A stretch of DNA of 42,975 nt, taken from the IMG/VR virus record IMGVR_UViG_3300032241_002516, positions 1 to 42,975 of that record. One strand, 5' to 3'. The position numbers and the translations under genes were made by a program. Below are positions 2,626 through 36,124 of the stretch, in pieces. The notes under the pieces were generated by a model. It saw only the letters and a program-made list of their open reading frames with translations, was not told the origin of the DNA and did not search any database. The stretch's first letter is position 1, and the number at the start of each line of letters is the position of its first letter. The DNA is from a virus.

Positions 2626-2628
2626 ACA

Positions 2629-2638: not shown

Positions 2639-2669
2639 GATAAATTTATTAATGTCAAAACTATTTATT
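2638..2669. repeat. 32-bp direct repeat, copy A (exonuclease end)
   Basis: Identical to 1679-1710. This copy contains the TAG stop of the exonuclease gene (2661-2663) followed by a relic of the helicase start (TTG ACA TTA ATA). It records that the exonuclease and helicase genes once met here with a 2-nt spacer. Confidence 0.9.
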
Positions 2670-18051: not shown

Positions 18052-18090
18052 AAAAAAGGTAACTACCTCCCATTATGCTGGGAAGGTAGC
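18052..18090 (-). terminator. Terminator overlapping the sheath stop codon
   Basis: Coding strand stem CTACCT-t-CCCA / TGGG-AGGTAG with a single bulge and 6-nt loop, then TTACCTTTTTT. The loop contains the TAA stop of the sheath gene. Confidence 0.8.
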
Positions 18091-19868: not shown

Positions 19869-20120
19869 CTAATCTATTCCTGTAAACTCTCCTCTTTCTA
19901 TATTGATGGTTCCTTTACCATATTTGGCTTGTAATTTACCACCAATTTCGATCTCTTGTTGTTTTAAATCCGATAATTCTTTTATAAGGTCGTCTTTTTG
20001 CAATTCAAGATCTTGTATTGTTAACTCAATTATCCCGAAACGTTCTATTAATTCAGCGCGTTTATTTTGAGTATTTTTAAGTTCTTGTAATTCTTCTTGT
20101 GTTAAAACTTTTGTTACCAT
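19869..20120 (-). CDS. Small coiled-coil protein
   Basis: An 83-residue protein predicted to be one long helical hairpin: residues 6-66 show heptad-like spacing of Leu and Ile (LTQEELQELKNTQNKRAELI, LTIQDLELQKDDLIKELSDL). The C-terminus, KYGKGTINIERGEFTGID, is likely a small beta hairpin. I recall similar small proteins beside structural genes in marine T4-like phages, but their function is unknown to me. It starts 9 nt after the SHAEG fibre gene, so it may be an assembly factor or trimerisation partner of that fibre. Confidence 0.72.
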   Translation of the reverse strand: MVTKVLTQEELQELKNTQNKRAELIERFGIIELTIQDLELQKDDLIKELSDLKQQEIEIGGKLQAKYGKGTINIERGEFTGID

Positions 20121-20129
20121 ATGTTATTT

Positions 20130-21290
20130 TTAAATACTATTTATACTTATCAGTTTTGTATATTCTATTTTAGAAAACCAAGCTACATTATAAGTACCAC
20201 TACCTGTAACATATATTGCTAATCTATCATGACTATCATCAGCGGCTGCACTAGCTGAAAAAGAAGTGGCAGCACCTGTTGTTGGAGATAATGTAAGAGA
20301 ACTACCATCAAATACTGTTGTACCACCGTAATTTTTTATTATTGCATTTCCTTTAAATACTCTACTAATACCATTTGCTCCCGCGTCTAATGCAGTTCCC
20401 ATAACTGTTACATCTACAAAATAAGCAGTATTTACAGGAATTGTAAAATAATCATTACCTAGACTACTTGAAATAAGTAGTTCTGCAGGAGTTGTACCTG
20501 AGGTTTGGTTAGATAGTGATAAAATACCGTATTGTCCTAAAGGAGTACTAGATCTAGCCCATTCACTTACATGACTTGTATAAGCAGATATACCTCCAGC
20601 ATGTGAATATGATCCAGAAGATATTGTACTATATCCTTCAGCATGAGAACTAGCTCCAGAAGATATTGTACTATATCCTTCAGCATGAGAACTAGCTCCA
20701 GGAGATACAGTATTGGATCCTTCGGCATGTGAATATCCACCAGAAGATGTTGTATAATAACCTTCGGCATGTGAAGAATAACCATTAGCTAAAGTAGAGA
20801 ATCCTTCAGCGTGTGAATAAATACCAGAGGCTGAAGCATTTATTCCTTGAGCAAAAGATCCTGTTCCTGAAGCTACTACACTATCTCCCATTTCAAAGGA
20901 ACGTAGGTTATAATTGTATCGGAAATTACTAGAACCTGAAAGAGTAGAACCACTATTGAATTGTATTTGTTTATCTGCTCCACCAGCACTAGCTCCACCA
21001 GCACTTGATAAAGCATAAGATGCTGTTAAAGCATAAGAAGCACTAATTGATTGAGATGAATTTGCCGCCCAACTTGAAGTACCATAAAATCCTACTCCAG
21101 ATAAAGATGATGTAAAATCATTACCTTTAATAGAACCGGTCATAGCAAATGAACCAGATAAATTAATATTGTAAGCTACTACACCTGTAAAAGCATCAAC
21201 TGATTGTGAAACGTGCCATGATTCAATAATATAGTTTTGAGCTATTTGATCTATACTAGGAGTAAATATATTTTTTAATACGTTTGCCAT
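20130..21290 (-). CDS. SHAEG-repeat tail fibre / adhesin with YadA-head-like repeats
   Basis: A 386-residue fibre protein in three parts. An N-terminal attachment region (1-90) ends in ASYALTASYALSS. Next come about six 14-residue repeats, SHAEGxxTxxxGxxS, related to YadA/Hep_Hag head repeats, which build trimeric left-handed beta-rolls. The C-terminal knob begins SEWARSSTPLGQYG and resembles a domain common at phage fibre tips. It is Ser-rich. The start overlaps the stop of the TibC-like glycosyltransferase gene (TAATG), so modifying enzyme and fibre would be made together. This is the best single candidate for a glycosylated receptor-binding fibre. Confidence 0.82.
   Translation of the reverse strand: MANVLKNIFTPSIDQIAQNYIIESWHVSQSVDAFTGVVAYNINLSGSFAMTGSIKGNDFTSSLSGVGFYGTSSWAANSSQSISASYALTASYALSSAGGASAGGADKQIQFNSGSTLSGSSNFRYNYNLRSFEMGDSVVASGTGSFAQGINASASGIYSHAEGFSTLANGYSSHAEGYYTTSSGGYSHAEGSNTVSPGASSHAEGYSTISSGASSHAEGYSTISSGSYSHAGGISAYTSHVSEWARSSTPLGQYGILSLSNQTSGTTPAELLISSSLGNDYFTIPVNTAYFVDVTVMGTALDAGANGISRVFKGNAIIKNYGGTTVFDGSSLTLSPTTGAATSFSASAAADDSHDRLAIYVTGSGTYNVAWFSKIEYTKLISINSI
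20614..20697. repeat. Two identical 42-bp tandem repeats in the fibre gene
   Basis: 20614-20655 and 20656-20697 are identical and encode one 14-residue SHAEG unit each. More diverged copies continue on both sides. Recombination between copies would change the repeat number in frame. Confidence 0.9.
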
Positions 21291-22495
21291 TAATTTTTGT
21301 TATAAATATTCAAAAGCTTATCAATTGCATCAAATACTTTAAGAGGTTTAATGGTTTTGGTACATTCAAATTGTCGTGGCGTATCTTTATGTTTTGGGCA
21401 CCATTCCCAATCTCCGGCATCTAAACGGTGAGTATTGAAACATCCCGTACAAACATTAGTATCATAATTAAATATACGTTCACAATCTAAAAATTCGCTA
21501 AAAGGTTGACTAAAGCCTGATATCAATATTGTTGGTGTACCTATACTCCAGCTTAACCAACTTAAACCACTACCTAATCCTATATATAAATCAGCATATT
21601 TCAGATCCACCATTCTATCTTCAATAGGATAATTGCCTGTTTTATCTATAACATATTTTAAAGTTCCACCTAGTTTTGAATCATGCCATTTATCTCCTAG
21701 TTTTTCAGACGTAATCATTACTACTTTATAACCATGATCATTTAAATAATCTATTACAGCTTGCCAACCACCAGGATAATTCCAATATTTTGCATGTGCT
21801 GAAGCATGTGGAGCTATAACAACATATTTTCCATCAATTTGTTTAGATTTATTAGGAATTGTTATTTTTGGTTTAATTTCACTATATTTTAAACCTAATA
21901 TTTCTGTTGAGGTTTGTCCTAAAGGATATTGTTTAAAATCAATAGGAATTCTATTTTTATTTATAGTATGATCTTCATTGTAAAACCATCCAATAGAATA
22001 CATAGCATATAAATTATTTACTTGACTACCTGGATCTACAAATTCAATTTCAGGGTATTGGTCTTTAAACCAATTGTTGTGAAATGTAGAACATATTAAT
22101 TCACAATTATGTTTTTTTCTAAATTCATCAATATAAGGGAACCAAGCTAAAGTATCACCAATAGCACTTGAATCCATATGAATATAAACTCTTCTACCAT
22201 TAGCATCATAATCATGTTCAAAAACTAATCCATTTTCATCATATACTTCAATTCTCCAACCAACAAAATATTTTATATTTGTTTTTGTCCACATATTGTT
22301 TTTAAGTGTGGTTTCATGGATTGTTTTGTTGGTTTTTTTATCTATACACCTAACAATATATTCTTTATCATCGGGGCCTGTGATTTCAACAAAAGCACCA
22401 TCTATAAAATGGAAATTAAAATTATTTTTTCCTTTTTTAGATGATATATTCAATTGTTGAATATTATTATATTCCTTGATTAATATTTCTTTCAT
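21290..22495 (-). CDS. TibC/AAH-like protein O-heptosyltransferase (GT9-type)
   Basis: A 401-residue GT-B glycosyltransferase. The N-terminal 90 residues form a beta-rich domain (FHFIDGAFVEITGP..EYIVRCIDK). The GT9-like core includes MDSSAIGDTLAWFPYIDEFRKKH near 112, APHASAHAKYWNYPGGWQ near 229, and LYIGLGSGLSWLSWSIGTPTILISGFSQPF. A four-Cys cluster at 349, 352, 366 and 378 (CTGC..WC..C) matches the iron-binding finger of bacterial autotransporter heptosyltransferases, which transfer ADP-heptose to Ser of repetitive adhesins. Sugar and target here are inferred. It lies between two other glycosyltransferases and a Ser-rich fibre, overlapping both neighbours. Confidence 0.85.
   Translation of the reverse strand: MKEILIKEYNNIQQLNISSKKGKNNFNFHFIDGAFVEITGPDDKEYIVRCIDKKTNKTIHETTLKNNMWTKTNIKYFVGWRIEVYDENGLVFEHDYDANGRRVYIHMDSSAIGDTLAWFPYIDEFRKKHNCELICSTFHNNWFKDQYPEIEFVDPGSQVNNLYAMYSIGWFYNEDHTINKNRIPIDFKQYPLGQTSTEILGLKYSEIKPKITIPNKSKQIDGKYVVIAPHASAHAKYWNYPGGWQAVIDYLNDHGYKVVMITSEKLGDKWHDSKLGGTLKYVIDKTGNYPIEDRMVDLKYADLYIGLGSGLSWLSWSIGTPTILISGFSQPFSEFLDCERIFNYDTNVCTGCFNTHRLDAGDWEWCPKHKDTPRQFECTKTIKPLKVFDAIDKLLNIYNKN
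21301..21310 (-). promoter_or_regulatory. Late-promoter-like element inside the end of the glycosyltransferase gene
   Basis: Coding strand AATATTTATA followed by ACAAAAA, 10 nt before the fibre ATG. Here the element also encodes the last residues (NIYNKN) of the glycosyltransferase. It could boost the fibre over the enzyme. Confidence 0.5.
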
Positions 22496-23447: not shown

Positions 23448-26120
23448 TTATTGTAAAAATATTAATGGATTATCTGTATTTGCGTCTTTTATTGTTTGTT
23501 CTATTATACTAAAACCAGGTAAGTGTTTAGTGTATATTTTTTCGGCTGTACCTATTCGTAACCTTGCTACATTACACATCCATAAATCTATAGCATCCCA
23601 AGGTGTTGTTTCTAGTAATTGTTTTATTTTAAACGTTTTTTCTCGCGTAATCAAATATGATTGTGCTGGTATAAATGGGGTGACATCTAAAAATATATCT
23701 TCGTATTTACCACCATTTAAATTTCTATCTTGCCATGGGTTTCCAAATCCAATAACATCCATATCTTTTTCTTTTGAGATACGTGCAAATCTAATTAAAG
23801 AATCATACAATTCTTGGTAATTAGAATCTATAACAACATCGCCCTCCACTATTAACACAAAATCATAATCAACATTGGTTTCATCGCAGATAGCGTTTTT
23901 ATGCGCTAAATAGCAACCATAATGTCCTGCGGCTAATTTATAGTATCCTGGTTTTTCTTGTACTACATCTGGACGATTACAATTGTGTTTTGGAGGGGTT
24001 TCTGTCCAAATTTTATTGATTTTTAAATCATAGTCTATACCCATTTGGTTGCAGAAATCTTTTATATTTTCTACAGAACGAATTTCCTTTGGATTGGTTT
24101 CAGGTTCTGTTGTTAGGTGCATTAATTTAATTTTAGGTCTAGGGTTTTTAACCTCCAATAAACCGTTATTTTGAATATCTTTTACCTCAAAATATCTTAT
24201 AAGATTATAACCTTCAACTCTATTTTCCATTTCAGAAAAATATATTGTTAATCCTTCTTTATATGGTATTATATCATACCAATCCAATTTACCTTCAACC
24301 TCTATAGCCTTATCATATATTGTTTGGTTTTTATCATCAATAACTACAATTTTAATAAATTTGTTTTCTTTGCTATTAGATATTCTAATAAAAGGAGCAA
24401 AAGTATTTGGGATGTTGGTAGGTAGTACTGTAAAATATTCTACACGTGAAAAATCAGTATGTTCAAATGTTTTTTCTATTTTTGAATTAAATGTACTTTC
24501 TTCTTCGCGGTATATATTTTCTATATTTTTAAAAGAATGGTAAAACATATTTTCTAAACCATTACTTTCACTACCTAACAATTTATATAATTGATCATAT
24601 TGTTCAGCATTTTCAACAACTGGAATAGTATTTACAAATGTTTCTGGTTTAATAGCAAAAAAGAATGTGTATAAACAATTTCCTTCATGTGCCTGGTATT
24701 TGCAAAAGTAAGCATTGCTGTTTTCTAGTTCTTTAGATATTTCGTTTACAAATTGTTCATCTTTTAAAATATAATCGTAATTTAAACAAAATGCCTTTTT
24801 AAATCCTAAACCATAAGCAAGTGAAACACCGTTGCTATAATTTGTGTAAACACTAGGGCCATGATACACATCATTGTTGTTGCCTCTTAAATTAACGTGT
24901 ACTTTATAATCAGGATGATCTGACCAATAATTGCAATAATATGAATGTTTGGTTAAAATATTATTGTTATCTAAAACAACATAATCTGCTATTTTACTTA
25001 ATTCTTGAGGAACAGGAATATGAGAAGTTAATATAACTTTACGTCCTGTTTTTTTAATTGCCTTAATACATTGTTTGGTAGATTCGATTATTATTTTTGA
25101 ACTAGGATAAGTTGAAATAACAAATATTTCTTCATCTTTATTTAAAAATGTTTTATCTAATCCTAAACTATCTAAAATTTTACCACAATTGGATTTAAAA
25201 TTATCAAAATTAAGATAACTTATATTATCAAACTTGTTGAAATAATTTAAATAAACTGGGAGATTATATATTAAAATAGGGATTTTATATGAAATAGCCT
25301 CGCGTATAACTAAAGGCATTGTTTCTTTATCTTGGTTTGTACCACGAGAGGTAAACAAAAATAAATCCATTGCTTGATAGAAATTCTCAACATCTGTTCT
25401 TTCATTCCACCATACAACATTTTCTGGTTTGGTTTTCATTAATGGTTTCCAATACCATTCAAAATTATCTGCTTGATTACCTACACAATGAAATATGATT
25501 TTTTCTTGTTGTAAAGCTTTAGCATATTCGAAAAATTCTTTTTGATTTTTTCGTGGTGTAAATAACCCAATATGTAAAACATGTTTATATTCAGGATCTA
25601 ATCCTAATTTTTCTAATGCCTTTGTTCTGTCAGGACGTTCAACATATTCTATTGGATATTCTACTAAAACAGAAGGAATGTTTATATCTTTGTATTGGTT
25701 TATTTGCCAATCAGATACAAACATAAATTTATCAGGAAAATATCTTTTTTGAGTTGTGTCGTAAGACGAATCGTGAGATGTTTCTACAATTTTATAAGTT
25801 CGTCTCGGGTCGTAAATAAAATCAGCAACCTTATCGTCCATAAACATTTCAGGAATTTCTTCCAAATGTATAATATCGGGTTGGGTTTTATTGATTATAG
25901 AAAACAATTGTGTTTTGTCTTCATATAATGTATAAAATTTTGAAGCAGGAAGTAAGTTTTTAATTTTGTTACGTTGAACAACTAACTTACCTCCTGTACA
26001 ATCTACCCATTCAACAAGGTAAATATCGAATTCGTTTTTAAGTAATTCTATTTTTTTAGTTAGATATTGCGGTAAACCACCTGTAGATAAGTGAGGGGCA
26101 ATGTATAACAATTTTTGCAT
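23448..26120 (-). CDS. Multidomain glycosyltransferase (GT4-like + GT-A-like + GT25-like)
   Basis: An 890-residue protein with at least three regions. Residues 1-310 are GT4-like (MQKLLYIAPHLSTGGLPQYL, VLHIGLFTPRKNQKEFFEYA, MPLVIREAISYKIPILIYN). Residues 325-560 look like a GT-A-type domain (IFVISTYPSSKIIIESTKQC, SNGVSLAYGLGFKKAFCLNYDY). Residues 560-670 are a beta-rich linker. Residues 670-890 resemble LPS-type GT25 enzymes (GHYGCYLAHKNAICDE, DFVLIVEGDVVIDS with the acidic donor motif). A single polypeptide may therefore build more than one linkage of a glycan, with the two following enzymes adding others. The target may be the flanking fibres, though phage-modified host glycans cannot be excluded. 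Confidence 0.8.
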   Translation of the reverse strand: MQKLLYIAPHLSTGGLPQYLTKKIELLKNEFDIYLVEWVDCTGGKLVVQRNKIKNLLPASKFYTLYEDKTQLFSIINKTQPDIIHLEEIPEMFMDDKVADFIYDPRRTYKIVETSHDSSYDTTQKRYFPDKFMFVSDWQINQYKDINIPSVLVEYPIEYVERPDRTKALEKLGLDPEYKHVLHIGLFTPRKNQKEFFEYAKALQQEKIIFHCVGNQADNFEWYWKPLMKTKPENVVWWNERTDVENFYQAMDLFLFTSRGTNQDKETMPLVIREAISYKIPILIYNLPVYLNYFNKFDNISYLNFDNFKSNCGKILDSLGLDKTFLNKDEEIFVISTYPSSKIIIESTKQCIKAIKKTGRKVILTSHIPVPQELSKIADYVVLDNNNILTKHSYYCNYWSDHPDYKVHVNLRGNNNDVYHGPSVYTNYSNGVSLAYGLGFKKAFCLNYDYILKDEQFVNEISKELENSNAYFCKYQAHEGNCLYTFFFAIKPETFVNTIPVVENAEQYDQLYKLLGSESNGLENMFYHSFKNIENIYREEESTFNSKIEKTFEHTDFSRVEYFTVLPTNIPNTFAPFIRISNSKENKFIKIVVIDDKNQTIYDKAIEVEGKLDWYDIIPYKEGLTIYFSEMENRVEGYNLIRYFEVKDIQNNGLLEVKNPRPKIKLMHLTTEPETNPKEIRSVENIKDFCNQMGIDYDLKINKIWTETPPKHNCNRPDVVQEKPGYYKLAAGHYGCYLAHKNAICDETNVDYDFVLIVEGDVVIDSNYQELYDSLIRFARISKEKDMDVIGFGNPWQDRNLNGGKYEDIFLDVTPFIPAQSYLITREKTFKIKQLLETTPWDAIDLWMCNVARLRIGTAEKIYTKHLPGFSIIEQTIKDANTDNPLIFLQ

Positions 26121-26175
26121 AACAATATTGTATTTCCAATAAATATAATAAATTTATATGGAAAATCCAAAAATA

Positions 26176-26445
26176 TTATATGCTTCCGCTTCCTGAAACT
26201 AAAGTAAGTCCTAGTTGGTTTGCTACATAGGTGGTTGGATACGAGTTATTACCGTCCCAATTTGTGTAGTTAGTTCCTGCTATGGCAATGACTCCGCTAT
26301 CATGTACAACACCGGATTCGTCTAAGACTTGCCATGATACTTTACATGCTCTATTAAAATCATCAGATATACTAGAAACTGATAGTTTGGTTACGTTTAC
26401 TGTGTCGCTATATTTCCATTTTACTGGAGAAATGTTTGTTGTCAT
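26176..26445 (-). CDS. Small virion-type protein, unknown
   Basis: An 89-residue beta-rich protein: alternating pattern VNVTKLSVSSISDD, CKVSWQVLDESGVVHDSGVIAIAGTNYTNW, then a Gly/Ser end. The WQVLDESG..VDSG type pattern suggests a single immunoglobulin-like or carbohydrate-binding-like sandwich. It follows the 127-aa gene by 11 nt in the unit headed by the 1360-aa collagen-like fibre, so it may be a fibre cap or head-decoration protein. There is no firm family assignment. Confidence 0.65.
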   Translation of the reverse strand: MTTNISPVKWKYSDTVNVTKLSVSSISDDFNRACKVSWQVLDESGVVHDSGVIAIAGTNYTNWDGNNSYPTTYVANQLGLTLVSGSGSI

Positions 26446-26456
26446 ATTTTATTTTT

Positions 26457-26840
26457 TTAACAAGTTACTTGATTTAAAGGTACTCCTAATGGGTCTATTT
26501 GAAAAGAAAACCCCTTATCTATGTAATAATACCATTGATTATTTCCGTTAAAAGCTACTCCTGCTGTACCAGGTGATAAGGTATAAAAACTACCGTCATA
26601 AGGAGATAAGTAAAGAATCCCTGTATTAGGGTCTGTAGGTCCGTTTGTACAAGCATCTAATGAACTTGCATAGGGTGTTAAACAAAAGTTTTGTGGTGTA
26701 CCAAAACCTAAACCTATAGACGTTCCTAGAATATTGTTTATTTCTTTAATTGATGTACCTGGAGCTCCTGCCTGGGATATGTTCACCCCATTGATTGTTC
26801 CTAAAACCAAAGTCGCATCTATGCCGTTTACTACTCCCAT
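26457..26840 (-). CDS. Small virion-type protein, unknown
   Basis: A 127-residue protein, Gly/Asn/Thr/Pro-rich, with four Cys (FCLTP, DACTNG and a C-terminal VTC). No domain was recognised. The middle segment, GILYLSPYDGSFYTLSPGTAGVAFNGNNQWYYYID, resembles short beta modules of fibre-associated proteins. It is encoded 12 nt after the 1360-aa fibre and before the 89-aa gene. A role in fibre assembly or tip formation is inferred only from position. Confidence 0.65.
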   Translation of the reverse strand: MGVVNGIDATLVLGTINGVNISQAGAPGTSIKEINNILGTSIGLGFGTPQNFCLTPYASSLDACTNGPTDPNTGILYLSPYDGSFYTLSPGTAGVAFNGNNQWYYYIDKGFSFQIDPLGVPLNQVTC

Positions 26841-26852
26841 GTTTTTATATTT

Positions 26853-29800
26853 TTATAATACTATGTAATCGTCTGATGGGTTAAAATAAACCACAATGCT
26901 ATTACTACTATAAGAGTTTCCGTACCACATCAAAAATCCTACTTTTCTTACCACTTCACCCGGTGTAAACGATGAAAGTACGTTTGTTATGTCTGTAATG
27001 CTACCAGATGCACCTGTATTGCTTTCGTCCATGTAAACAGGCATGCCTGTAGATGGTGATGCAAAGTCTGTATATCCTGATGTTAAATCTATACTATACA
27101 TACCTTGGAGTAATATTGAAGTAGTATTACCTGTAGTTGCTGTTTTTAAACAAATACCTAACATGTTTACTGAAGTATCTTGTTCTAATACTGCATCTGA
27201 TAAATCCCATTGTCCGCTACCGTTTCTAAAACACAGTTGGCCAGCAAATAGGTTATTGGCAGCAGTTTCGTTAGGTAGCGCAGTTCCGTTAAAATATCCA
27301 GATTGCCATGTGTTTGCTGGATCTAAAGTAGATACCATACCTCCAACGGGTTTATAAGTACCGTATGAAGAAGTAATAGCGCTATATCCTCCCAACAAAG
27401 CTTTTTGACTAGTTATGTATTGTACATTTGGAGTATCAGTAACAGCGTTAGAACCTGAAGTTAACACCATGTAATTTGGATAATCTCCAAAAGAACCTGT
27501 AATGTTACCACCACCTCCACCACCACCTGAACCTGTAGCTACAGTTATGTTAAAAGTAGAACCATTACCTTTTGTAAACGTTATGGTGTTTGAAGATACT
27601 GAAGCTGTGATTAAAGCATTTGGGGTATATGATGAAGTAGCTGAGTAAGAGGAACTTGCAGCAGAGTTTGAATTCGTAAATATCGAACCTGTTACATACG
27701 ATGCTGTTAATGCCTGGGTTGCATAAGAAGCGGTACCTAATAAAGAACCTGTAAATGAAGATGCTGTGATAGAACCACTTACTGTAAGAATATTAGATCC
27801 TATACTTGCGGATATAAAAGGAACACTTTGAACTTGGTTTGAGCTTGAAGCATAAACTAAATTACCAATATAGTTGTTAAAAGCACCACCGCTAATACCG
27901 GCTGTACCATTTATAGAAACACCTGAAGAACCAGTTGAACCTGAAGTACCAGAAGTACCAGCAACACCTGAAGTACCTGCTACACCGGATAAACCAGAAG
28001 AACCTGAAGTACCAGAAGAACCACTTGTTGTACTTGTACCAGAGGCACCATTACCACCGTTTGCACCATTTGAACCTGAAGTTCCTGAAGAACCAGAAGT
28101 TCCTGATATATTTGAAGATCCATTTGCACCAGCGTTTCCGTTTGTACCATTTGAACCTGTTGAACCACTTGTACCACTTATATTTGAAGCACCATTTGCA
28201 CCTGTAGCACCACTTGAACCGTTTGAACCGGATGTACCTGAAGTTCCACTTAGTGCACTTACACCTGAAGAACCTGCTATACCTGAAGTACCGTGGGTAC
28301 CTGAAGATCCTGAAGTTCCTGAAGAACCTGAAGTTCCGGATACACCAGAAGTACCATTTGCTCCTGTACCTGAAGTACCTGTTGAACCTGAAGTACCAGA
28401 AGTACCAGCAGCACCAGAAGTACCGTTTGCTCCTGTTAAACCATTTGAACCTGTTGTACCTGAAGAACCTGAAGTTCCAGATAAAGCAGAAGCACCATTT
28501 GCACCCGCAGCACCACTAGAACCGTTTGAACCTGAAGAACCAGATGTTCCAGATAAAGCAGAAGCTCCGAAAGAACCTGCTATACCTGTTGTACCCTGAG
28601 TTCCTGAAGAACCGGAAGTACCAGATGAACCTGAAGTTGTTGAATTGCCACTTGTACCTGCTGCTCCTGTTGAACCACTTGAGCCTGAAGAACCTGAAGT
28701 TCCTGAAGTTGCACTTAAGCCTGAGGCACCAGCACCACCATTTAAACCACTTGAGCCAGAAGTACCTGAAGAACCTGAAGTATTTGAACTACCACTTGTT
28801 CCAGCATTACCACTAGTACTATTGTTACCGCTAGAACCGTTTGAACCAGAAGAACCTGAGGTTCCACTTGTAGCGCTTGCACCACTAGCACCATTGTTAC
28901 CATTTGAACCAGAAGATCCAGATGAACCTGAAGAACCTGAGGTTGTACTCGCTGCACTTGCTCCTGTAGAACCACTATTACCTGTTGTACCTGAAGAACC
29001 AGAAGAACCAGAAGAACCACTTAAAGCAGATAAACCTATAGCGCCTGCTACACCACTTGAACCATTTGTACCTGAGGTACCTGAGGTACCTGAAGTTGAA
29101 GATATACCTGAAGTTGATGCTACACCTGAAGTACCAGCAGCACCTGAAGAACCTACAGAACCAGAAGAACCTGAAGTTCCAGAAACATTACTTGTACCTG
29201 ATCCACCAGCCGCACCATTTGAACCTGTTGTACCTGAAGAACCAGAAGAACCAGACAATGCGCTTGCTCCATTTCCACCAGCAGCACCACTAGAACCGTT
29301 TGTACCTGAAGAACCTGAAGTACCTGATAAAGCAGAAGCTCCGAAAGAACCTGCTAAACCTGAAGTACCCTGAGTACCAGATGAACCTGAGGTTCCTGAA
29401 GAACCTGAAGTTGAACTTAAACCTGAAGTACCGGCAGCACCACTGGAACCATTAGTTCCACTTGAACCTGAAGTTCCTGAAATATTTGAAGTACCACTAG
29501 CACCAGCATTACCATTTGTACCATTTGAACCTGTTGTACCTGAAGTACCTGATATGTTTGAAGAGCCATTTGCTCCTGCTATACCACTTGAACCAGCAGA
29601 ACCAGAAGTACCTGAAGTTCCGCTTATATTTGAAGATCCGTTAGCGCCTGCTACACCTGAAGAACCGTTTGTACCAGTTGAGCCTGAAGTACCAGACAAA
29701 GCGCTTGCTCCATTTGAACCTATATTTCCACTTGTACCAGAAGAACCAGAAGTTCCTGAAGAGGCAGAAGCTGCACTTGCTCCCGCTACACCTGTAGAAC

Positions 29801-30935
29801 CAGATGTTCCTGAAGAACCTGAACTACCACTAGTATTAGATAAAGCGCTTATACCTGCTGAACCTGCAACACCTGTTGTGCCATTTGAACCAGAGGTACC
29901 TGAAGTTCCGCTTATATTTGAAGCACCGTTTACACCTGCTACTCCATTTGAACCTGCAGAACCAGAAGATCCAGAGGTTCCTGAAATATTTGAAGATCCG
30001 TTAGCGCCTGCGGCACCACTAGAACCGTTTGTACCTGCTGAGCCTGAAGTTCCGCTTAAAGCCGAGGCTCCAAAAGAACCTGCTATGCCTGAAGTACCGT
30101 AAGTACCTGAAGATCCTGAAGTTCCTGAAGAACCTGAAGTTGAACTAATACCTGAAGTACCTGCGTTTCCGCTTGTTCCAGCTGCACCACTTGAACCATT
30201 TGAACCAGCAGAACCTGAGGTTCCTGAAGTTGTAGAAGCACCAGAAGCGCCAGCATTACCATTTGAACCTGTTGTACCCGTTGAGCCTGAAGTTCCTGAA
30301 GAAGCGGAAGCACCTGAAACGCCTCCAACTCCTGAAGAACCAGTTGTACCACTAGAACCTGAAGAACCACTTGTATTTGAAGATGCACTAGCACCGGCTA
30401 CACCTGTTGTACCACTAGAGCCTGAAGAACCACTTGAACCTGAAGTAACAGAAACACCGGAAGTGCCAGCTAAACCTGTAGAGCCATTTGAACCTGAAGA
30501 ACCACTTGTTCCACTTAAAGAACTAGCGCCGTTTGAACCAGCGGCTCCTGAAGTACCTGAAGAACCACCTGAACCTGAAGTACCAGAAGGTGAAGAAGTT
30601 GAAGTACCAGAAGTACCAGCTATACCTGAAGAACCATTTGAACCCGAAGATCCAGCAGTTCCGCTTGATGCACTAGCACCATTTGAACCATTAACACCTG
30701 AAGTACCTGATCTACCTGTTGTACCAGAAGAACCAGCTACCCCACTTGTACCCGAAGTGGCGTTTACATATCCTAAATTGTTTGTTGAGGGATTATAAGT
30801 AACAACATAAACTATATCCTGTGTGGGCAAAGTTGCCGCTAAAGGATTAGATCCTGATATTGTTAATGAACCTGTAATTTGGGAATTGCCCTGGTCTACA
30901 AGTAAACCATTTTTGACTCTAAATTCGTTTGCCAT
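26853..30935 (-). CDS. Collagen-like tail fibre (1360 aa)
   Basis: A 1360-residue fibre. Residues 1-60 are a short N-terminal attachment region (VKNGLLVDQGNSQITGSLTISG). Residues 62 to about 1015 are Gly-X-Y triplets made of Gly, Ser, Thr, Asn and Ala with almost no Pro or charge; every 8-10 triplets the first Gly is replaced (triplets such as NIS, ALS, TTS). A fibre stalk follows (FNNYIGNLVYASSSNQVQSVP, ASYATQALTASY), then a Gly7 linker and a C-terminal globular domain of about 190 residues, probably the receptor-binding or trimerising tip. The stalk junction is nearly identical to that of the 1716-aa fibre. The Ser/Thr-rich shaft is a natural O-glycosylation target for the adjacent enzymes. 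Confidence 0.85.
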   Translation of the reverse strand: MANEFRVKNGLLVDQGNSQITGSLTISGSNPLAATLPTQDIVYVVTYNPSTNNLGYVNATSGTSGVAGSSGTTGRSGTSGVNGSNGASASSGTAGSSGSNGSSGIAGTSGTSTSSPSGTSGSGGSSGTSGAAGSNGASSLSGTSGSSGSNGSTGLAGTSGVSVTSGSSGSSGSSGTTGVAGASASSNTSGSSGSSGTTGSSGVGGVSGASASSGTSGSTGTTGSNGNAGASGASTTSGTSGSAGSNGSSGAAGTSGNAGTSGISSTSGSSGTSGSSGTYGTSGIAGSFGASALSGTSGSAGTNGSSGAAGANGSSNISGTSGSSGSAGSNGVAGVNGASNISGTSGTSGSNGTTGVAGSAGISALSNTSGSSGSSGTSGSTGVAGASAASASSGTSGSSGTSGNIGSNGASALSGTSGSTGTNGSSGVAGANGSSNISGTSGTSGSAGSSGIAGANGSSNISGTSGTTGSNGTNGNAGASGTSNISGTSGSSGTNGSSGAAGTSGLSSTSGSSGTSGSSGTQGTSGLAGSFGASALSGTSGSSGTNGSSGAAGGNGASALSGSSGSSGTTGSNGAAGGSGTSNVSGTSGSSGSVGSSGAAGTSGVASTSGISSTSGTSGTSGTNGSSGVAGAIGLSALSGSSGSSGSSGTTGNSGSTGASAASTTSGSSGSSGSSGSNGNNGASGASATSGTSGSSGSNGSSGNNSTSGNAGTSGSSNTSGSSGTSGSSGLNGGAGASGLSATSGTSGSSGSSGSTGAAGTSGNSTTSGSSGTSGSSGTQGTTGIAGSFGASALSGTSGSSGSNGSSGAAGANGASALSGTSGSSGTTGSNGLTGANGTSGAAGTSGTSGSTGTSGTGANGTSGVSGTSGSSGTSGSSGTHGTSGIAGSSGVSALSGTSGTSGSNGSSGATGANGASNISGTSGSTGSNGTNGNAGANGSSNISGTSGSSGTSGSNGANGGNGASGTSTTSGSSGTSGSSGLSGVAGTSGVAGTSGTSGSTGSSGVSINGTAGISGGAFNNYIGNLVYASSSNQVQSVPFISASIGSNILTVSGSITASSFTGSLLGTASYATQALTASYVTGSIFTNSNSAASSSYSATSSYTPNALITASVSSNTITFTKGNGSTFNITVATGSGGGGGGGNITGSFGDYPNYMVLTSGSNAVTDTPNVQYITSQKALLGGYSAITSSYGTYKPVGGMVSTLDPANTWQSGYFNGTALPNETAANNLFAGQLCFRNGSGQWDLSDAVLEQDTSVNMLGICLKTATTGNTTSILLQGMYSIDLTSGYTDFASPSTGMPVYMDESNTGASGSITDITNVLSSFTPGEVVRKVGFLMWYGNSYSSNSIVVYFNPSDDYIVL
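27818..27929. repeat. Shared fibre junction module, copy 2
   Basis: Nearly identical to 32805-32917. Encodes GVSINGTAGISG plus NNYIGNLVYASSSNQVQSVP at the collagen-to-stalk boundary. Confidence 0.85.
27884..30752. repeat. Collagen-like Gly-X-Y coding repeat, second fibre
   Basis: About 2.9 kb of 9-nt-multiple repeats (coding strand GGT/GGA-TCT/ACT-TCA type units) encoding roughly 950 residues. Similar repeats occur at 32876-35638, so homologous recombination and in-frame slippage within and between the two genes are possible. Confidence 0.9.
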
Positions 30936-30962
30936 ATGTTACCTTTCACTTTCCAGGTTACT

Positions 30963-30972
30963 TATAAATATT
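30963..30972 (-). promoter_or_regulatory. Late-promoter-like element before the 1360-aa fibre gene
   Basis: Coding strand AATATTTATA followed by AGTAACC, 27 nt before the ATG. It overlaps the stop region of the upstream fibre gene. A GAAAGG sequence lies near the ATG, one of the few Shine-Dalgarno-like leaders here. Confidence 0.55.
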
Positions 30973-30973
30973 G

Positions 30974-33900
30974 TTATAATAGGTTTACAACCGTTTTTAT
31001 TGTCCATCCTGCTGTAGGAAACACTGTACTTAATACTATATTGGCTCCACTTAAAGAAGATGTTAAATAAACGTTTGATGTATTACCTATATCTAATGTT
31101 GTTACTTCATTTGATTGAATGCTACCACCATTCCATACGGTTATTATTTGACCCGCGCGAGCATTTGAACCAGATGATAAAGTATAATTGTAAAATGCTG
31201 AGGTATAAGAACCTGTAGCATTTGTTGATAATGTTTGAGCACCTGAGCCTAATGAGCTTGAATTTTGGTTTAAAATAGCTGATTGGCTTATGGTTAAAAC
31301 ATTACCATTAAAATATGATGATGTACTAGCGTATGAAGCAGATGTTGCAGTTGCTGCATTTCCAGAAATAGAAGCACTTATATAAGATAAGTTTTCCCAT
31401 TTTGTTGCAGTAGCATTATATACTAAAGCTTGACCATCTGTTGGACCAGATATCTGTACATCAGATAAACTTGCTAAAGTTGTAGTAATTGTAGAACCAC
31501 CACCTCCAGAACCTCCTACACCTCTAAACAATCCACCAGGGATTATAGAATAAGTAGATGAGTTTGTAAAGTTGGCATTATTTTGAACCAATATATATCC
31601 TAAAAATATAGCGTTTGCTGCAGTGTTAGGGGCTTCAACAAAAGATTCTATGTTTATGTTAGATAAAGCTGTTGCTTGGTTTGCGTATTGTTGATTACCA
31701 TAATAAACCACTATTGCTTTTGTAACACTATTAGGATACCAAAACACTCTTTGAATTGACCAACCTCTATTTGGTCCACTACTTGTTACTGCTGTTAAAA
31801 CACCATTATTAGAATATTGAGTAGGATCAATTGTAGGATAACCAGCACCTCCATTTATAAGATATTCCCATTGAGAACCAGAATCATAATATCTAAATAT
31901 TTTAGATACGTTTGTACCAGAATCTACTACATAAGAAGGATTATTTGGATCTGTTGTATAATTTGCACCAGGGGTATAAGCTGTACCACTTCCAACAACT
32001 AAACTACCTGTAGATGAACCACTTGGGGCTAAAGTAAAACCAGATAATTTTAAAGGTCCAAAAGCTCTATTGAATATATTTTGTGCTTGTTCAAAACCAT
32101 AGGCTAATGAAGGTTGGGTTTTAACACCGTTGATAGTAGAATTGTTTTGGAAAAGTATAACACCTACATTAATAATAGTATCAAATTGACCATCAGAAAA
32201 TGGAGTACCTTGTTGATATATATTTCCTGTAGCATTTATACCTACAAAAGCTTGATCATATGAAGCCGATAAAGGAGCAATACTAGCGGTTAAATTTCCC
32301 CAATTTACATAAGTTATTGTAGGATATGGGTTATTAGATAAACTTGCATTTAAATTAACTACAATACCTGAACCACTTCCTACTTGATAAACAGTAGAAG
32401 AAGCAGTTGATAATACACCACCATTTAATAAACCCGTATATAAATTACCTTCTATCCAACGTAAACGAGTTGTATTTGAATATCCTGAACCGTTTTGAGA
32501 AAAATATAAGTCATCTGTAGAACCAGATACAAAAATATAAGATCCTGAAATAGTAGTATCTATATTTTTATTAACAGGATCAAACTTGATAACACCGTTT
32601 GTTTCCATGTCACCGTATACTCTAATTGTAGGGGTTGAAGGTGTTGTGGTCGAACCCGATATTATGATTGAACCTGAAAGGGTTGTGTTTCCTAAGAGAT
32701 TATTGTTTCCTGTTTGTGTGGTTGAACCGGTTATATCTAAACTACCTGTTAATACTTGACTACCTGTTATATAAAATATAGAATTTTCTAAACTTGCAGA
32801 TAAGAAAGGAACACTTTGAACTTGATTTGAGCTTGAAGCATAAACCAAGTTACCAATATAGTTGTTAAATACAGCTCCGCTAATACCGGCTGTACCATTT
32901 ATAGAAACACCTGAAGATCCTGCTGTACCACTTGTACCTGAAGTACCGTTTGCACCAGCAATACCTGTTGAACCTGTTGTACCTGAAGAACCTGAAGTTC
33001 CTGAAGAAGCAGATAAACCACTTGCTCCAGCTAAACCGCTAGAACCAGAAGTACCAGTTGAACCAGAAGTACCAGATAAAGCGCTTGCTCCATTTGAACC
33101 TATATTTCCACTTGTACCACTTGAACCTGAAGTTCCTGAAGTAGCAGAAAGTGCACTTGTTCCTGCTACACCTGTAGAACCAGATGTTCCTGAAGAACCA
33201 CTTGTTCCTGAAGATGCGCTTAAAGCAGATAAACCATTTGAACCTGCAACTCCACTAGATCCGTTTGAACCGGTAGAACCAGAAGTTCCTGATATATTTG
33301 AAGATCCATTTATGCCAGTTGCGCCTGTTGAACCATTTGAACCTGTTGAACCTGAAGTTCCTGATAAAGCACTTGCTCCTGAAGAACCATCAACACCACT
33401 AGAACCATTTGTACCAGTTGAACCAGAAGTACCAGATAAAGCAGAAGCACCGCTTGTACCAGCTACACCTGTTGAACCATTTGTACCAGTTGAACCTGAG
33501 GTTCCACTAGTAAATGAATTTCCTGAAGTTCCTGCTATACCGCTTGAACCATTAGAACCAGTTGAACCAGAAGAACCGGAAGTAGCAGATAAACCACTTA
33601 ATCCAGAGACTCCGTTTGAACCTGAAGTACCTGTTGAACCTGAAGTTGAACTAGCACCTGAGGTACCGGCTAAACCAGTTGAACCGTTTGTACCTGTTGA
33701 ACCTGAAGTTCCGCTTAAAGCGCTTTCTCCTGAAGAACCTGCTATACCTGAAGATCCATTTGAACCTGTTGATCCAGATGTACCTGAGGTTGCACTTGCA
33801 CCTGATACTCCGGCTATACCACTTGAACCATTCGAACCTGTAGATCCTGAAGTTCCAGATATTGCTGAAGAACCATTTAAACCATTAGCTCCACTAGAAC

Positions 33901-36124
33901 CATTTGTACCAGTTGAACCAGAAGTTCCAGATAAAGCACTTAATCCATTTGTACCCGTAATACCTGTAGAACCATTTGAACCTGAAGTTCCTGAGGTTGC
34001 ACTTGCACCTGAAGTACCTGCTAAACCACTAGAACCAGAAGTACCAGTTGAACCTGAAGATCCTGAAGTTGAGCTAGCGCCTGAAGCACCGGCTACACCG
34101 TTTGAACCTATAGTACCACTTGAACCTGTTGTACCACTAGATGCGCTTAAACCACTTGCTCCTGCTACACCTGCTGAACCTGTCGTACCTGAAGAACCTG
34201 AAGTTCCTGAAGTTGCAGATAAACCACTTACACCTGCTGAACCTGTTAAACCAGTTGAACCATTTGTACCTGTTGAACCTGATGAACCTGAATTTGCAGA
34301 TAAACCTGAGGTTCCCGATAAACCAGCAGAACCGTTTGTACCTGAAGAACCTGAAGTTCCAGAAATATTACTTGTACCTGAAGAACCTACACCACCACTT
34401 GTACCATTTGATCCAGTTGAACCTGAAGTACCAGATCCTGTAGCAGAAGAAGTACCTGAAGAACCAACTCCACCACTTGTACCTGAAGATCCACCTGAAC
34501 CTGAAGTTGCAGATAAACCACTTGCTCCAGCTATACCTGAAGAACCAGATGTACCTGTTGAACCTGAAACTCCACTTGAAGAAGAAGTTCCTGAAGTACC
34601 ACCAGCACCAGTAGAACCATTTGAACCTGTTGTACCTGAAGTTGCTGAAAAACCACTTATACCAGCGGCTCCACTAAAACCACTAGAACCATTTGTACCT
34701 GAAGATCCAGAAGATCCACTTGTTCCACTTGTATTTGAAAGTGCGCTTAAACCTGCTGATCCAGCAACACCTGTTGTACCATTTGAACCTGTTGAACCTG
34801 AAGTTCCTGATAAACCAGAAATTCCGGCTGTACCATTTAAACCAGCGGAACCATTTGAACCTGTTGATCCAGAAGATCCACTTGCACCTGAGGCTCCGTT
34901 ATTACCACTACCACCATTTGAACCTGAAGTTCCTGAAGAACCAGAAGAACCACTAAGGGCACTACCCCCATTGTTTCCTGCAACGCCTGTTGAACCAGAT
35001 GTACCTGAAGAACCAGAAGTTGAAGATATCGCACTTAAACCAGATGAACCTGTTGAACCCGAAGTTCCAGAAACACCTGAAGATCCAGAAGAACCTGAAG
35101 TTGCACTTACATTTGAAATACCATTTGTACCGGCAATACCACTAGAACCATTTGAGCCAGTAGAACCAGAAGTACCTGAAATATTTGAAAGTCCATTTGC
35201 TCCTGCGTTTCCGCTTGAACCATTTGAACCAGATGAACCTGAAGTTCCACTTAAAACGCTTAACCCATTTGTACCTGCTATACCAGTAGAACCATTTGAA
35301 CCAGAAGATCCAGCTGTTCCACTTAAATTAGAAGTACCATTTGAACCAGCGGCACCACTAGAACCAACAGAACCTGTTGAACCTGAAGTACCACTTGTTG
35401 ATGAATTTCCAGAAATACCAGCTATACCTGTTGAACCATTTGAGCCAGTAGAACCAGAAGTTCCGGAAGTTGCAGATAAACCACTTGCACCACTTGCTCC
35501 TGAAGATCCGTTTGAACCTGAAGAACCTGAAGTACCTACAGTACCTGAAGAACCAGAAGAACCACTTGTACCAGAAGAACCAGCAGTACCTGCTGTTCCT
35601 GAAGTACCAGCAGAACCTGAAGTACCACCTGTACCTGAAACAGCACCTAAAGCAACTAATGTAAAATATGAAGGAGAATTTGAGGGAGTTTGACTACCAT
35701 TTGTGGTTTGGGTAACCAACCAAGTACTACCATTATAATATACAAGATCACCTTGTTCATAAGGAATACCATATATAAATCCACCTACCCATTTGTTTAT
35801 AAAATCACCATTTGAACCTGCTGTACCTGCGCTTCCTGAAGAACCTGAAGTACCAGAAAGACCTGATGAACCTGATGTACCATTATATCCTGAAGAGCCA
35901 TTTTTTCCTGAAGAACCTGAAGTACCTGCAACACCCGAAGAACCCATAGGGCCTGATGCACCTGAAGTACCTGATGTACCGTAGCTTAAACCTGAAGTAC
36001 CAGTTGTACCAGAAGTACCATAAGTTTGCCCAGATGTACCAGAAGAACCGGTTCCTCCAGTTCCACTTCCTTGTACTGTATATGCTCCAACGGGTACTTG
36101 GTCCAAAAATCTAACTCTAGCCAT
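30974..36124 (-). CDS. Collagen-like tail fibre (1716 aa) with carbohydrate-binding-like insert
   Basis: The largest protein in the window, 1716 residues. After an N-terminal segment (MARVRFLDQVPVGAYTVQG) comes a first Gly-X-Y stretch (21-106). A compact domain at 108-158 (W..GFIYGIPYEQGDLVYYNGSTWLVTQ..TPSNSPSYFTLVA) has the pattern of ChtBD3/CBM5_12-type modules. A second Gly-X-Y shaft runs from about 163 to 1082. The C-terminal 630 residues hold the stalk shared with the other fibre, beta-rich domains with GSITISG-type repeats, an LSDVQISGPTDGQALVYNATATKWEN module common in phage fibres, and ASYASTSSY segments. Only one Pro (GPM) was noticed in the shafts. Probably a long tail fibre directly downstream of the tail-completion genes. 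Confidence 0.85.
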   Translation of the reverse strand: MARVRFLDQVPVGAYTVQGSGTGGTGSSGTSGQTYGTSGTTGTSGLSYGTSGTSGASGPMGSSGVAGTSGSSGKNGSSGYNGTSGSSGLSGTSGSSGSAGTAGSNGDFINKWVGGFIYGIPYEQGDLVYYNGSTWLVTQTTNGSQTPSNSPSYFTLVALGAVSGTGGTSGSAGTSGTAGTAGSSGTSGSSGSSGTVGTSGSSGSNGSSGASGASGLSATSGTSGSTGSNGSTGIAGISGNSSTSGTSGSTGSVGSSGAAGSNGTSNLSGTAGSSGSNGSTGIAGTNGLSVLSGTSGSSGSNGSSGNAGANGLSNISGTSGSTGSNGSSGIAGTNGISNVSATSGSSGSSGVSGTSGSTGSSGLSAISSTSGSSGTSGSTGVAGNNGGSALSGSSGSSGTSGSNGGSGNNGASGASGSSGSTGSNGSAGLNGTAGISGLSGTSGSTGSNGTTGVAGSAGLSALSNTSGTSGSSGSSGTNGSSGFSGAAGISGFSATSGTTGSNGSTGAGGTSGTSSSSGVSGSTGTSGSSGIAGASGLSATSGSGGSSGTSGGVGSSGTSSATGSGTSGSTGSNGTSGGVGSSGTSNISGTSGSSGTNGSAGLSGTSGLSANSGSSGSTGTNGSTGLTGSAGVSGLSATSGTSGSSGTTGSAGVAGASGLSASSGTTGSSGTIGSNGVAGASGASSTSGSSGSTGTSGSSGLAGTSGASATSGTSGSNGSTGITGTNGLSALSGTSGSTGTNGSSGANGLNGSSAISGTSGSTGSNGSSGIAGVSGASATSGTSGSTGSNGSSGIAGSSGESALSGTSGSTGTNGSTGLAGTSGASSTSGSTGTSGSNGVSGLSGLSATSGSSGSTGSNGSSGIAGTSGNSFTSGTSGSTGTNGSTGVAGTSGASALSGTSGSTGTNGSSGVDGSSGASALSGTSGSTGSNGSTGATGINGSSNISGTSGSTGSNGSSGVAGSNGLSALSASSGTSGSSGTSGSTGVAGTSALSATSGTSGSSGTSGNIGSNGASALSGTSGSTGTSGSSGLAGASGLSASSGTSGSSGTTGSTGIAGANGTSGTSGTAGSSGVSINGTAGISGAVFNNYIGNLVYASSSNQVQSVPFLSASLENSIFYITGSQVLTGSLDITGSTTQTGNNNLLGNTTLSGSIIISGSTTTPSTPTIRVYGDMETNGVIKFDPVNKNIDTTISGSYIFVSGSTDDLYFSQNGSGYSNTTRLRWIEGNLYTGLLNGGVLSTASSTVYQVGSGSGIVVNLNASLSNNPYPTITYVNWGNLTASIAPLSASYDQAFVGINATGNIYQQGTPFSDGQFDTIINVGVILFQNNSTINGVKTQPSLAYGFEQAQNIFNRAFGPLKLSGFTLAPSGSSTGSLVVGSGTAYTPGANYTTDPNNPSYVVDSGTNVSKIFRYYDSGSQWEYLINGGAGYPTIDPTQYSNNGVLTAVTSSGPNRGWSIQRVFWYPNSVTKAIVVYYGNQQYANQATALSNINIESFVEAPNTAANAIFLGYILVQNNANFTNSSTYSIIPGGLFRGVGGSGGGGSTITTTLASLSDVQISGPTDGQALVYNATATKWENLSYISASISGNAATATSASYASTSSYFNGNVLTISQSAILNQNSSSLGSGAQTLSTNATGSYTSAFYNYTLSSGSNARAGQIITVWNGGSIQSNEVTTLDIGNTSNVYLTSSLSGANIVLSTVFPTAGWTIKTVVNLL
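32805..32917. repeat. Shared fibre junction module, copy 1
   Basis: Nearly identical to 27818-27929; only scattered substitutions are visible. Suggests duplication or gene conversion between the two fibre genes. Confidence 0.85.
32876..35638. repeat. Collagen-like Gly-X-Y coding repeat, first fibre (main shaft)
   Basis: About 2.76 kb encoding some 920 residues of Gly-X-Y with periodic Gly loss (triplets such as NLS, ALS, STS) every 8-10 triplets. The opposite strand stays open through most of this region because the repeat codons do not complement to stops. Confidence 0.9.
35651..35803 (-). other. ChtBD3/CBM5_12-like module within the fibre
   Basis: Encodes residues 108-158 of the 1716-aa fibre. 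The spacing of aromatic residues and the GD-VYYNGSTW core fits small carbohydrate-binding modules that recur in phage fibres. It splits the collagen shaft into a short and a long part. Confidence 0.5.
35807..36064. repeat. Collagen-like Gly-X-Y coding repeat, first fibre (short shaft)
   Basis: Encodes residues 21-106, including two Tyr-containing triplets (QTY, LSY) and one GPM triplet not seen elsewhere in the shafts. Confidence 0.85.

What the first reader, a model, noticed from the sequence alone, without database searches (positions are those of the whole stretch)
20130..36124. Candidate phage fibre self-glycosylation locus with a TibC-like heptosyltransferase
Seen: three consecutive overlapping glycosyltransferase genes (890, 326, 401 aa) lie between two collagen-like fibres and a SHAEG-repeat fibre, and the 401-aa gene is coupled to the SHAEG fibre by TAATG. 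Known: the 401-aa protein resembles the TibC/AAH family, including a four-Cys finger; those enzymes put heptose on Ser of repetitive adhesins. Inferred: the phage decorates its Ser/Thr-rich fibres, which could stabilise them, mask receptor tips or hide them from host defences. An enzyme-fibre pair moved from autotransporter biology into a virion would be notable.
Basis: partly seen in the sequence, partly recalled or inferred. Interest (0 to 1): 0.85.

Follow-up and report, generated by a model that had tools for sequence, protein, structure and literature searches.

The report
Phage collagen-fibre glycosylation cassette
A T4-like phage from an environmental sample carries a three-gene set of sugar-adding enzymes, one clearly in the family that puts heptose on bacterial adhesins, and comparison with many other phages suggests the enzymes coat the phage's own collagen-like, serine-rich tail fibres with sugar rather than the neighbouring SHAEG fibre that first drew attention.

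Summary
The genes are there as described. The 401-aa protein is a genuine TIGR04414 (TibC/AAH) family member: 347 bits against a cut-off of 200, with the catalytic Asp, donor-binding Lys and Trp and all four finger Cys invariant in 22 phage sequences. The proposed pairing with the SHAEG fibre fails: only 1 of 60 related loci has a SHAEG-type gene between enzyme and sheath, 47 of 60 have no fibre there, and SHAEG fibres occur in phages without the enzyme. What travels with the enzyme is the Pro-free Ser/Thr collagen-like fibre. TIGR04414 occurs in 22 of 40 viral records picked only by a GTS/GSS repeat pattern, against 0/20 Pro-type collagen, 0/27 random and 1/28 sheath-relative records. Unrelated phages (a 735-kb phage, Microcystis phage Mel-JY01) and two Methylobacter chromosomes show the same pair. 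The 890-aa protein carries a GT25-type domain whose best structural matches are collagen glycosyltransferases (COLGALT1, mimivirus R655). Best reading: an O-glycosylation cassette for collagen-like virion fibres, heptose-first inferred. No chemistry is shown, exceptions exist, and an LPS or other target is not excluded. I found no earlier report of this pairing in the papers searched.

The parts
21290..22495 (-). TibC/AAH-family protein O-heptosyltransferase (401 aa)
   Evidence: TIGR04414 347.4 bits (cut-off 200); PDB TibC 4rap E=1.9e-59; D114, K236, W313 and four Cys invariant in 22 phage homologues
21362..21451 (-). four-Cys finger of the 401-aa enzyme (C349, C352, C366, C378)
   Evidence: aligns to TibC iron-finger C339/C342/C358/C370
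22467..23447 (-). GT4-type glycosyltransferase (326 aa); fused to the TibC domain in other phages
   Evidence: weak Pfam GT4 hits just below the cut-offs; conserved beside TibC and fused to it in L083, L542, L551, L553 and others
23448..26120 (-). 890-aa multidomain glycosyltransferase
   Evidence: GT4 domain, 'NYDYIL' domain, beta domain, GT25-type C-terminal domain
25161..26120 (-). GT4 domain of the 890-aa protein (residues 1-320)
   Evidence: PF00534 48.2 bits; Foldseek GT4 enzymes
23451..24158 (-). GT25-type domain of the 890-aa protein (residues 655-890)
   Evidence: PF01755 hits 13 of 14 relatives, best E=2.1e-5 (the window member alone 19 bits, below cut-off 24); model pLDDT 86, pTM 0.86; top PDB matches COLGALT1 E=5.8e-8, TM 0.60, and mimivirus R655
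26853..30935 (-). collagen-like fibre 1 (1360 aa): 270 GXY triplets, Ser/Thr-rich; proposed acceptor
   Evidence: PF01391 311 bits; S/T at about 67% of X and Y positions, no Pro in the triplets
30974..36124 (-). collagen-like fibre 2 (1716 aa): 293 GXY triplets, Ser/Thr-rich; proposed acceptor
   Evidence: PF01391 317 bits; one Pro in 586 X/Y positions
20130..21290 (-). SHAEG-repeat fibre (386 aa), occupant of a variable slot; not the conserved partner
   Evidence: phrog_25468; no GXY repeats; absent from nearly all related loci
26176..26445 (-). 89-aa ORF between collagen fibre and cassette, unknown
   Evidence: ORF, no Pfam/PHROG hit
26457..26840 (-). 127-aa ORF between collagen fibre and cassette, unknown
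   Evidence: ORF, no Pfam/PHROG hit
19869..20120 (-). 83-aa ORF conserved between cassette and sheath
   Evidence: found in most relatives in the same place
18073..19809 (-). tail sheath (context)
   Evidence: Phage_sheath_1 and phrog_23

Best explanation
The 890-326-401 genes are a late, virion-directed protein O-glycosylation cassette. Its acceptors are the Ser/Thr side chains of the long, proline-free collagen-like (Gly-X-Y) fibres encoded just upstream, before they trimerise and join the tail. The TibC-family enzyme makes the first protein-sugar bond (heptose from host ADP-heptose is the default guess; the exact sugar is open), the two GT4 domains and the GT25-type domain lengthen or branch the glycan, and FkbM-type methyltransferase modules in relatives cap it. 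The sugars would stabilise a triple helix that lacks Pro/Hyp, protect the fibre from proteases and shape its surface. Shown here: family membership, conserved catalytic residues, gene order, and association with Ser/Thr collagen repeats across unrelated phages and in bacteria. Inferred: the acceptor, the donor sugar, the order of steps and the benefit.
For: TIGR04414 membership and active-site conservation. Conserved GSS fibre-890-326-TibC-sheath order; 20 of 23 loci with enough upstream DNA have a GXY fibre upstream (19 of them Ser/Thr-rich) and 2 of the other 3 have one on the opposite strand. TIGR04414 in 22/40 records chosen only by a GTS/GSS repeat, against 0/27 random (Fisher p=5e-7), 0/20 Pro-type collagen (p=9e-6), 1/28 sheath relatives (p=5e-6). 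In the same records 16 of 22 windows of 20 kb around TibC hold an S/T-rich GXY gene, against 4 of 17 windows elsewhere that hold any GXY gene. 11 of 15 TibC clusters at 50% identity have an S/T-rich GXY gene nearby; 0 of 120 random loci do. LR756501 and Mel-JY01, found without regard to collagen, both have it next door. Methylobacter luteus and Methylobacter sp. BlB1 chromosomes: a gene for a protein with an apparent signal peptide and GTS repeats (PF01391 above cut-off in M. luteus) ends about 40 bases before a TIGR04414 gene. GT25-type domain matches collagen glycosyltransferases structurally.
Against: No biochemical or mass-spectrometric data. 18 of 40 GSS-repeat records lack TIGR04414, and those 18 have no more GT4 genes than random records (4/18 vs 5/27), so the modification is not required for every such fibre, although the records may be fragments. 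L037 has the cassette beside a Pro-type (GPQ) collagen, and one TibC clade (L137, L406, L563, L096, L105, L278) sits beside Pro-type collagen or none. GT25 structures in PDB are few and largely collagen enzymes, so the COLGALT1 match shows the fold class, not the acceptor. The position that sets donor stereochoice in TibC (P300) is Gly308 here in every relative aligned, so the sugar may differ. No heptose-synthesis marker (TIGR02199) above cut-off in 32 phage records searched, 31 of them TibC-positive.
Confidence: 0.66

Rival explanations
1. The enzymes modify host lipopolysaccharide or another surface glycan, for example to block superinfection, and sit in the tail region only because it is a hypervariable host-recognition region.
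For: The 401-aa protein also scores weakly with LPS heptosyltransferase models; earlier work on pelagimyophages reads tail-region glycosyltransferases as O-chain modifiers (PMC7029224).
Against: It scores ten times higher in bits with the protein O-heptosyltransferase model than with RfaQ, and far below the cut-offs of the LPS models; protein-acceptor features such as the four-Cys finger are kept; LPS modification does not predict an association with Ser/Thr collagen repeats, nor the Methylobacter collagen-TibC gene pair.
Confidence: 0.15
2. One reading: the 401-aa enzyme glycosylates the SHAEG fibre translated right after it, like TibC on TibA.
For: TAATG coupling in this phage; weak match of the SHAEG region to BimA, a trimeric autotransporter, whose partner BimC is discussed together with TibC in PMC11499645; one close relative (L002) has the same arrangement.
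Against: 1 of 60 loci; 47 of 60 have no fibre in the slot; SHAEG fibres in TibC-negative phages. It may still be a secondary acceptor in this phage.
Confidence: 0.06
3. The acceptor is another virion protein, such as the tail sheath, which lies next to the cassette in most loci and varies in length.
For: Sheath is the nearest conserved downstream gene, with lengths from about 566 to 752 aa in complete-looking copies; capsid and tail-tube glycosylation is known in mycobacteriophages (Freeman et al. 2023, cited in PMC12619734).
Against: The cassette is found away from the sheath in L065/L076, LR756501 and Mel-JY01, where collagen-like genes remain close; related sheaths occur without the enzyme (1/28 have it).
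Confidence: 0.08
4. The enzymes glycosylate the phage's DNA bases.
For: Many phages carry DNA glycosyltransferases (general knowledge).
Against: No hydroxymethylation or other base-hypermodification gene turned up in the family searches made on this window (a fragment, and not all ORFs were scanned); placement among late tail genes; protein-acceptor family.
Confidence: 0.03

Closest known systems
TibC/AAH bacterial autotransporter heptosyltransferases (BAHT, TIGR04414; Yao et al. 2014, PMC4358343)
   Same: Same family by curated cut-off; catalytic Asp, donor Lys and Trp and four-Cys finger kept
   Different: Neighbour is a collagen-like fibre, not a beta-helical autotransporter; donor-choosing Pro/Ser position is Gly; usually accompanied by or fused to GT4, GT25-type and FkbM modules; phage-borne
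Collagen glycosyltransferases COLGALT1/GLT25D1 and mimivirus R655/R699/L230
   Same: GT25-type domain of the 890-aa protein matches COLGALT1 and R655 structurally; viral genes that modify viral collagen
   Different: Those act through hydroxylysine; these fibres have almost no Lys in the repeats and no lysyl hydroxylase was found in the cassette; 12% identity only
Glycosylated bacterial collagen-like proteins (BclA of Bacillus exosporium; reviewed in PMC8968730)
   Same: Gly-X-Y repeats glycosylated in a prokaryotic system, thought to aid hydration and stability
   Different: BclA repeats are of the GPT type with Pro (general knowledge); its enzymes were not compared here; spore, not virion
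Virion glycosylation of mycobacteriophages (Freeman et al. 2023; not readable here, known through citation in PMC12619734)
   Same: Glycans on phage virion proteins
   Different: Capsid and tail-tube C-termini rather than collagen-like fibres; enzyme families not compared here

Membership tests
TIGR04414 / BAHT protein O-heptosyltransferase | score above the curated model cut-off | tested here: met
   347.4 vs 200 bits; all 22 aligned phage members match the model
TIGR04414 / BAHT protein O-heptosyltransferase | catalytic base (TibC D110) | tested here: met
   D114 invariant
TIGR04414 / BAHT protein O-heptosyltransferase | donor-binding T226, K230, R286, W305 | tested here: met
   S232 (Thr in the two divergent phages), K236 invariant, R294 at least 90%, W313 invariant
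TIGR04414 / BAHT protein O-heptosyltransferase | four-Cys iron finger | tested here: met
   C349, C352, C366, C378 invariant
TIGR04414 / BAHT protein O-heptosyltransferase | N-terminal TibC beta-barrel domain | tested here: inconclusive
   PF21129 19 bits, below cut-off 27; PDB alignment spans it
TIGR04414 / BAHT protein O-heptosyltransferase | donor stereochoice residue Pro300 (TibC) or Ser294 (AAH) | tested here: not met
   Gly308 in all relatives aligned; TibC and AAH themselves differ here, so it bears on the sugar rather than on family membership
TIGR04414 / BAHT protein O-heptosyltransferase | autotransporter strand-loop-strand acceptor next door | tested here: not met
   neighbours are collagen-like and variable fibres; so it is a member of the enzyme family but not an autotransporter system
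TIGR04414 / BAHT protein O-heptosyltransferase | dodecamer, heptose transfer to Ser | not testable with these tools
   needs protein biochemistry
GT25 (PF01755) domain in the 890-aa protein | score above Pfam gathering cut-off | tested here: inconclusive
   19 bits vs 24 for the window member; 13 of 14 relatives match at E<=0.1, best 2.1e-5
GT25 (PF01755) domain in the 890-aa protein | GT25 fold | tested here: met
   COLGALT1 E=5.8e-8, TM 0.60 on a pLDDT 86 model
Collagen-like proteins (PF01391) | Gly-X-Y repeat above cut-off | tested here: met
   311 and 317 bits vs 27.2
Collagen-like proteins (PF01391) | triple helix formed | not testable with these tools
   needs circular dichroism or a structure

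The most novel reading that the evidence does not exclude
TibC-family O-heptosylation of proline-free Ser/Thr collagen repeats is a widespread prokaryotic and phage way of stabilising collagen triple helices without proline or hydroxyproline, used on virion tail fibres by unrelated aquatic phages and on secreted collagen-like proteins by bacteria such as Methylobacter.
Probability: 0.38. Interest if true: 0.88.

Novelty: new variant of a known kind. Interest (0 to 1): 0.72.

Why it matters
If true, it gives a specific protein acceptor to a class of phage glycosyltransferases often put down to host LPS or DNA modification, extends the TibC family from adhesins to collagen-like fibres, and suggests how very long collagen-like fibres with almost no proline could be stable. 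Microcystis phage Mel-JY01, an annotated phage with a recorded host, and the two-gene Methylobacter pair make it directly testable.

Tried and rejected
SHAEG fibre as acceptor: rejected as the general partner. A pure synteny artefact of one T4-like lineage: rejected, because the pairing recurs in 11 of 15 TibC clusters, other architectures (TibC fused to the 326-type GT, to a GT25-type domain, or inside 1,200-1,450-aa proteins), other genomic contexts and bacterial chromosomes. Any collagen repeat as partner: rejected as a general rule by 0/20 in Pro-type records, though L037 and one TibC clade are exceptions. A general GT enrichment in GSS records without TibC: not seen (4/18 vs 5/27). Phage-encoded ADP-heptose synthesis: no TIGR02199 match above cut-off in 32 records. 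The first genome-contig scan with the single sequence found nothing; the alignment scan worked. One search was a meaningless pattern test and is not used. PDB sequence searches with the 890-aa protein or the GT25-type domain profile gave no relevant hit. The mycobacteriophage virion-glycosylation paper is not held. Predicted pTM of the whole 890-aa model is low (0.43), so its domain arrangement is not interpreted.

Full report
What is there. The window is a 42,975-base IMG/VR record with T4-like genes: gp23 major capsid protein (251 bits), PhoH, tail-associated lysozyme, sheath and tube. All genes of the finding are on the minus strand. Transcription order: collagen-like fibre 1716 aa, collagen-like fibre 1360 aa, ORFs of 127 and 89 aa, the 890-, 326- and 401-aa enzymes, the 386-aa SHAEG fibre, an 83-aa ORF, sheath, tube. 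The 890 and 326 genes abut, 326 and 401 overlap by 29 bases, 401 and the SHAEG gene share one base. The closest cultured relative by sheath is Flavobacterium phage immuto (54% identity), so a Bacteroidota host is plausible but not shown.

The 401-aa enzyme. It matches TIGR04414, autotransporter strand-loop-strand O-heptosyltransferase, with 347 bits against a cut-off of 200 and solved TibC with E=1.9e-59. The eLife 2014 study (PMC4358343) names D110 as the candidate base, T226, K230, R286 and W305 as donor-binding, and C339, C342, C358, C370 as the iron finger. In 22 phage sequences the matching D114, K236, W313, C349, C352, C366 and C378 are invariant, R294 is nearly so and S232 takes the place of T226. 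The residue that sets donor stereochoice (Pro in TibC, Ser in AAH) is Gly308 throughout, so heptose is the default guess, not a proven donor.

The other enzymes. The 326-aa protein looks like a GT4 enzyme, with scores just under the Pfam cut-offs. The 890-aa protein has a clear GT4 domain, a middle domain I call NYDYIL after its motif, a beta domain, and a C-terminal domain with weak GT25 similarity, stronger in relatives (13 of 14, best E=2.1e-5). Its model (pLDDT 86, pTM 0.86) matches human collagen galactosyltransferase COLGALT1 first (E=5.8e-8, TM 0.60) and then mimivirus R655, a putative collagen glycosyltransferase. PDB holds few other GT25 structures, so I take this as fold class only. 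The modules are shuffled in relatives: the GT25-type domain may be absent, separate or fused to TibC; FkbM methyltransferase domains are fused to the 890-type protein in L032 and L037; the 326-type GT is fused to TibC in many phages.

Which fibre? Eighty loci were fetched with the 401-aa protein. The order fibre-890-326-TibC-83 aa-sheath-tube is conserved. Among 60 non-redundant loci with enzyme and sheath, 47 have less than 800 bases between them, hence no fibre, and only one has a HAEG-repeat ORF there. SHAEG-type fibres occur in TibC-negative phages: immuto, which has no TIGR04414 match in its whole genome, and Verrucomicrobia phage P8625. Upstream, 20 of 23 loci with more than 5.5 kb of DNA before the enzyme have a Gly-X-Y fibre; L037's is Pro-type; L065 and L076 have theirs on the other strand. 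Immuto itself has no run of five Gly-X-Y triplets in its tail region.

Test in the other direction. Viral records were picked only by a DNA pattern for GTS/GSS repeats, and those of 40 kb or more were searched whole for TIGR04414: 22 of 40 positive. Controls: 1 of 28 records picked by the immuto sheath, 0 of 20 picked by a Gly-Pro-X pattern and 0 of 27 picked by an arbitrary 14-mer; Fisher p between 5e-7 and 9e-6. The sheath and 14-mer controls include records shorter than 40 kb, and related records are not fully independent. In the positive records, 16 of 22 windows of 20 kb around TibC hold an S/T-rich Gly-X-Y gene (S/T at 0.59-0.98 of X/Y positions, Pro near 0), against 4 of 17 windows elsewhere in the same records that hold any Gly-X-Y gene. 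Gly-X-Y fibres in sheath controls without TibC have lower S/T (0.34-0.55) and often Pro. TibC domains form 15 clusters at 50% identity, 11 with an S/T-rich Gly-X-Y gene nearby; none of 120 random loci has one.

Independent cases. The 735-kb phage assembly LR756501 and Microcystis phage Mel-JY01 were found by the enzyme alone and both have collagen-like genes next to it. In LR756501 the TibC and 326-type domains are one protein; in Mel-JY01 GT4, NYDYIL, a methyltransferase-like stretch and TibC are one 1,227-aa protein, annotated only as 'methyltransferase FkbM'. In genome contigs, Methylobacter luteus and Methylobacter sp. BlB1 have a gene for a protein with an apparent signal peptide and GTS repeats ending about 40 bases before a TIGR04414 gene, and an Acidiferrobacterales MAG has a TIGR04414 gene about 1 kb from a short (SGTSGSS)n gene. 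The tree places the Methylobacter pair with Mel-JY01 (96/90) among diverse phages.

Mechanism. The fibres offer 361 and 402 Ser/Thr at X/Y positions, arranged mostly in blocks of seven triplets separated by one non-Gly triplet such as NIS or ALS, with virtually no Pro in the triplets. Collagen triple helices usually rely on Pro/Hyp; bacterial ones are thought to use hydration networks, and BclA glycosylation is thought to help (PMC8968730). I therefore propose that the TibC-family enzyme starts, and the GT4 and GT25-type domains extend, O-glycans on these fibres, stabilising and protecting them. Acceptor, donor and benefit are inferred.

What weighs against it. Eighteen of 40 GSS records lack the enzyme, with no GT4 excess over random. 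L037 and one TibC clade are linked to Pro-type collagen or none. No sugar chemistry is shown. No heptose-synthesis marker above cut-off was found in the phage records. Earlier authors read tail-region glycosyltransferases of pelagimyophages as host-LPS modifiers (PMC7029224).

Novelty. Virion glycosylation, collagen glycosylation and TibC-type O-heptosylation are each known. Their combination, a TibC-family cassette tied to Pro-free collagen-like phage fibres and also present as a gene pair in bacteria, I did not find described in the papers searched; most subscription journals are outside that library. I rate it a new variant of a known kind.

Noticed in passing
L082 (PP395634.1) 635-3052 + versus 739-2298 -: In Mel-JY01 the annotated 'hypothetical protein' WWT39287.1 lies antisense to an 805-aa collagen-like ORF (PF01391 179 bits) that is not annotated in full; the antisense call is probably spurious.
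   Followed up: partly
L082 4747-8430: WWT39291.1, annotated 'methyltransferase FkbM', is a GT4-NYDYIL-methyltransferase-TibC fusion.
   Followed up: partly
window 32862-35693 +: A 943-aa open frame antisense to the 1716-aa collagen-like gene, Pro/Val/Glu-rich: an artefact of the repeat.
   Followed up: partly
window 26853-36124 -: The collagen-like repeats have a mostly 24-residue period: seven Gly-X-Y triplets then one non-Gly triplet (NIS, ALS, ATS); regular interruptions that could be hinges.
   Followed up: no
L583 6935-9137; L584 6950-9170: Methylobacter chromosomal pair of a secreted-looking GTS-repeat protein with two similar conserved domains and a TIGR04414 enzyme.
   Followed up: partly
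L137, L406, L563, L096, L105, L278: A separate TibC clade with fused proteins of 760-1,250 aa that goes with Pro-type collagen or with no collagen.
   Followed up: partly
window 6136-7404 - and 5700-6176 -: 422-aa protein that by eye resembles part of a family A DNA polymerase, overlapping a 158-aa ORF; no Pfam hit for either.
   Followed up: no
window 18073-19809 - and relatives: Tail sheath length varies from about 566 to 752 aa in complete-looking relatives, so there are variable insertions in the sheath.
   Followed up: no
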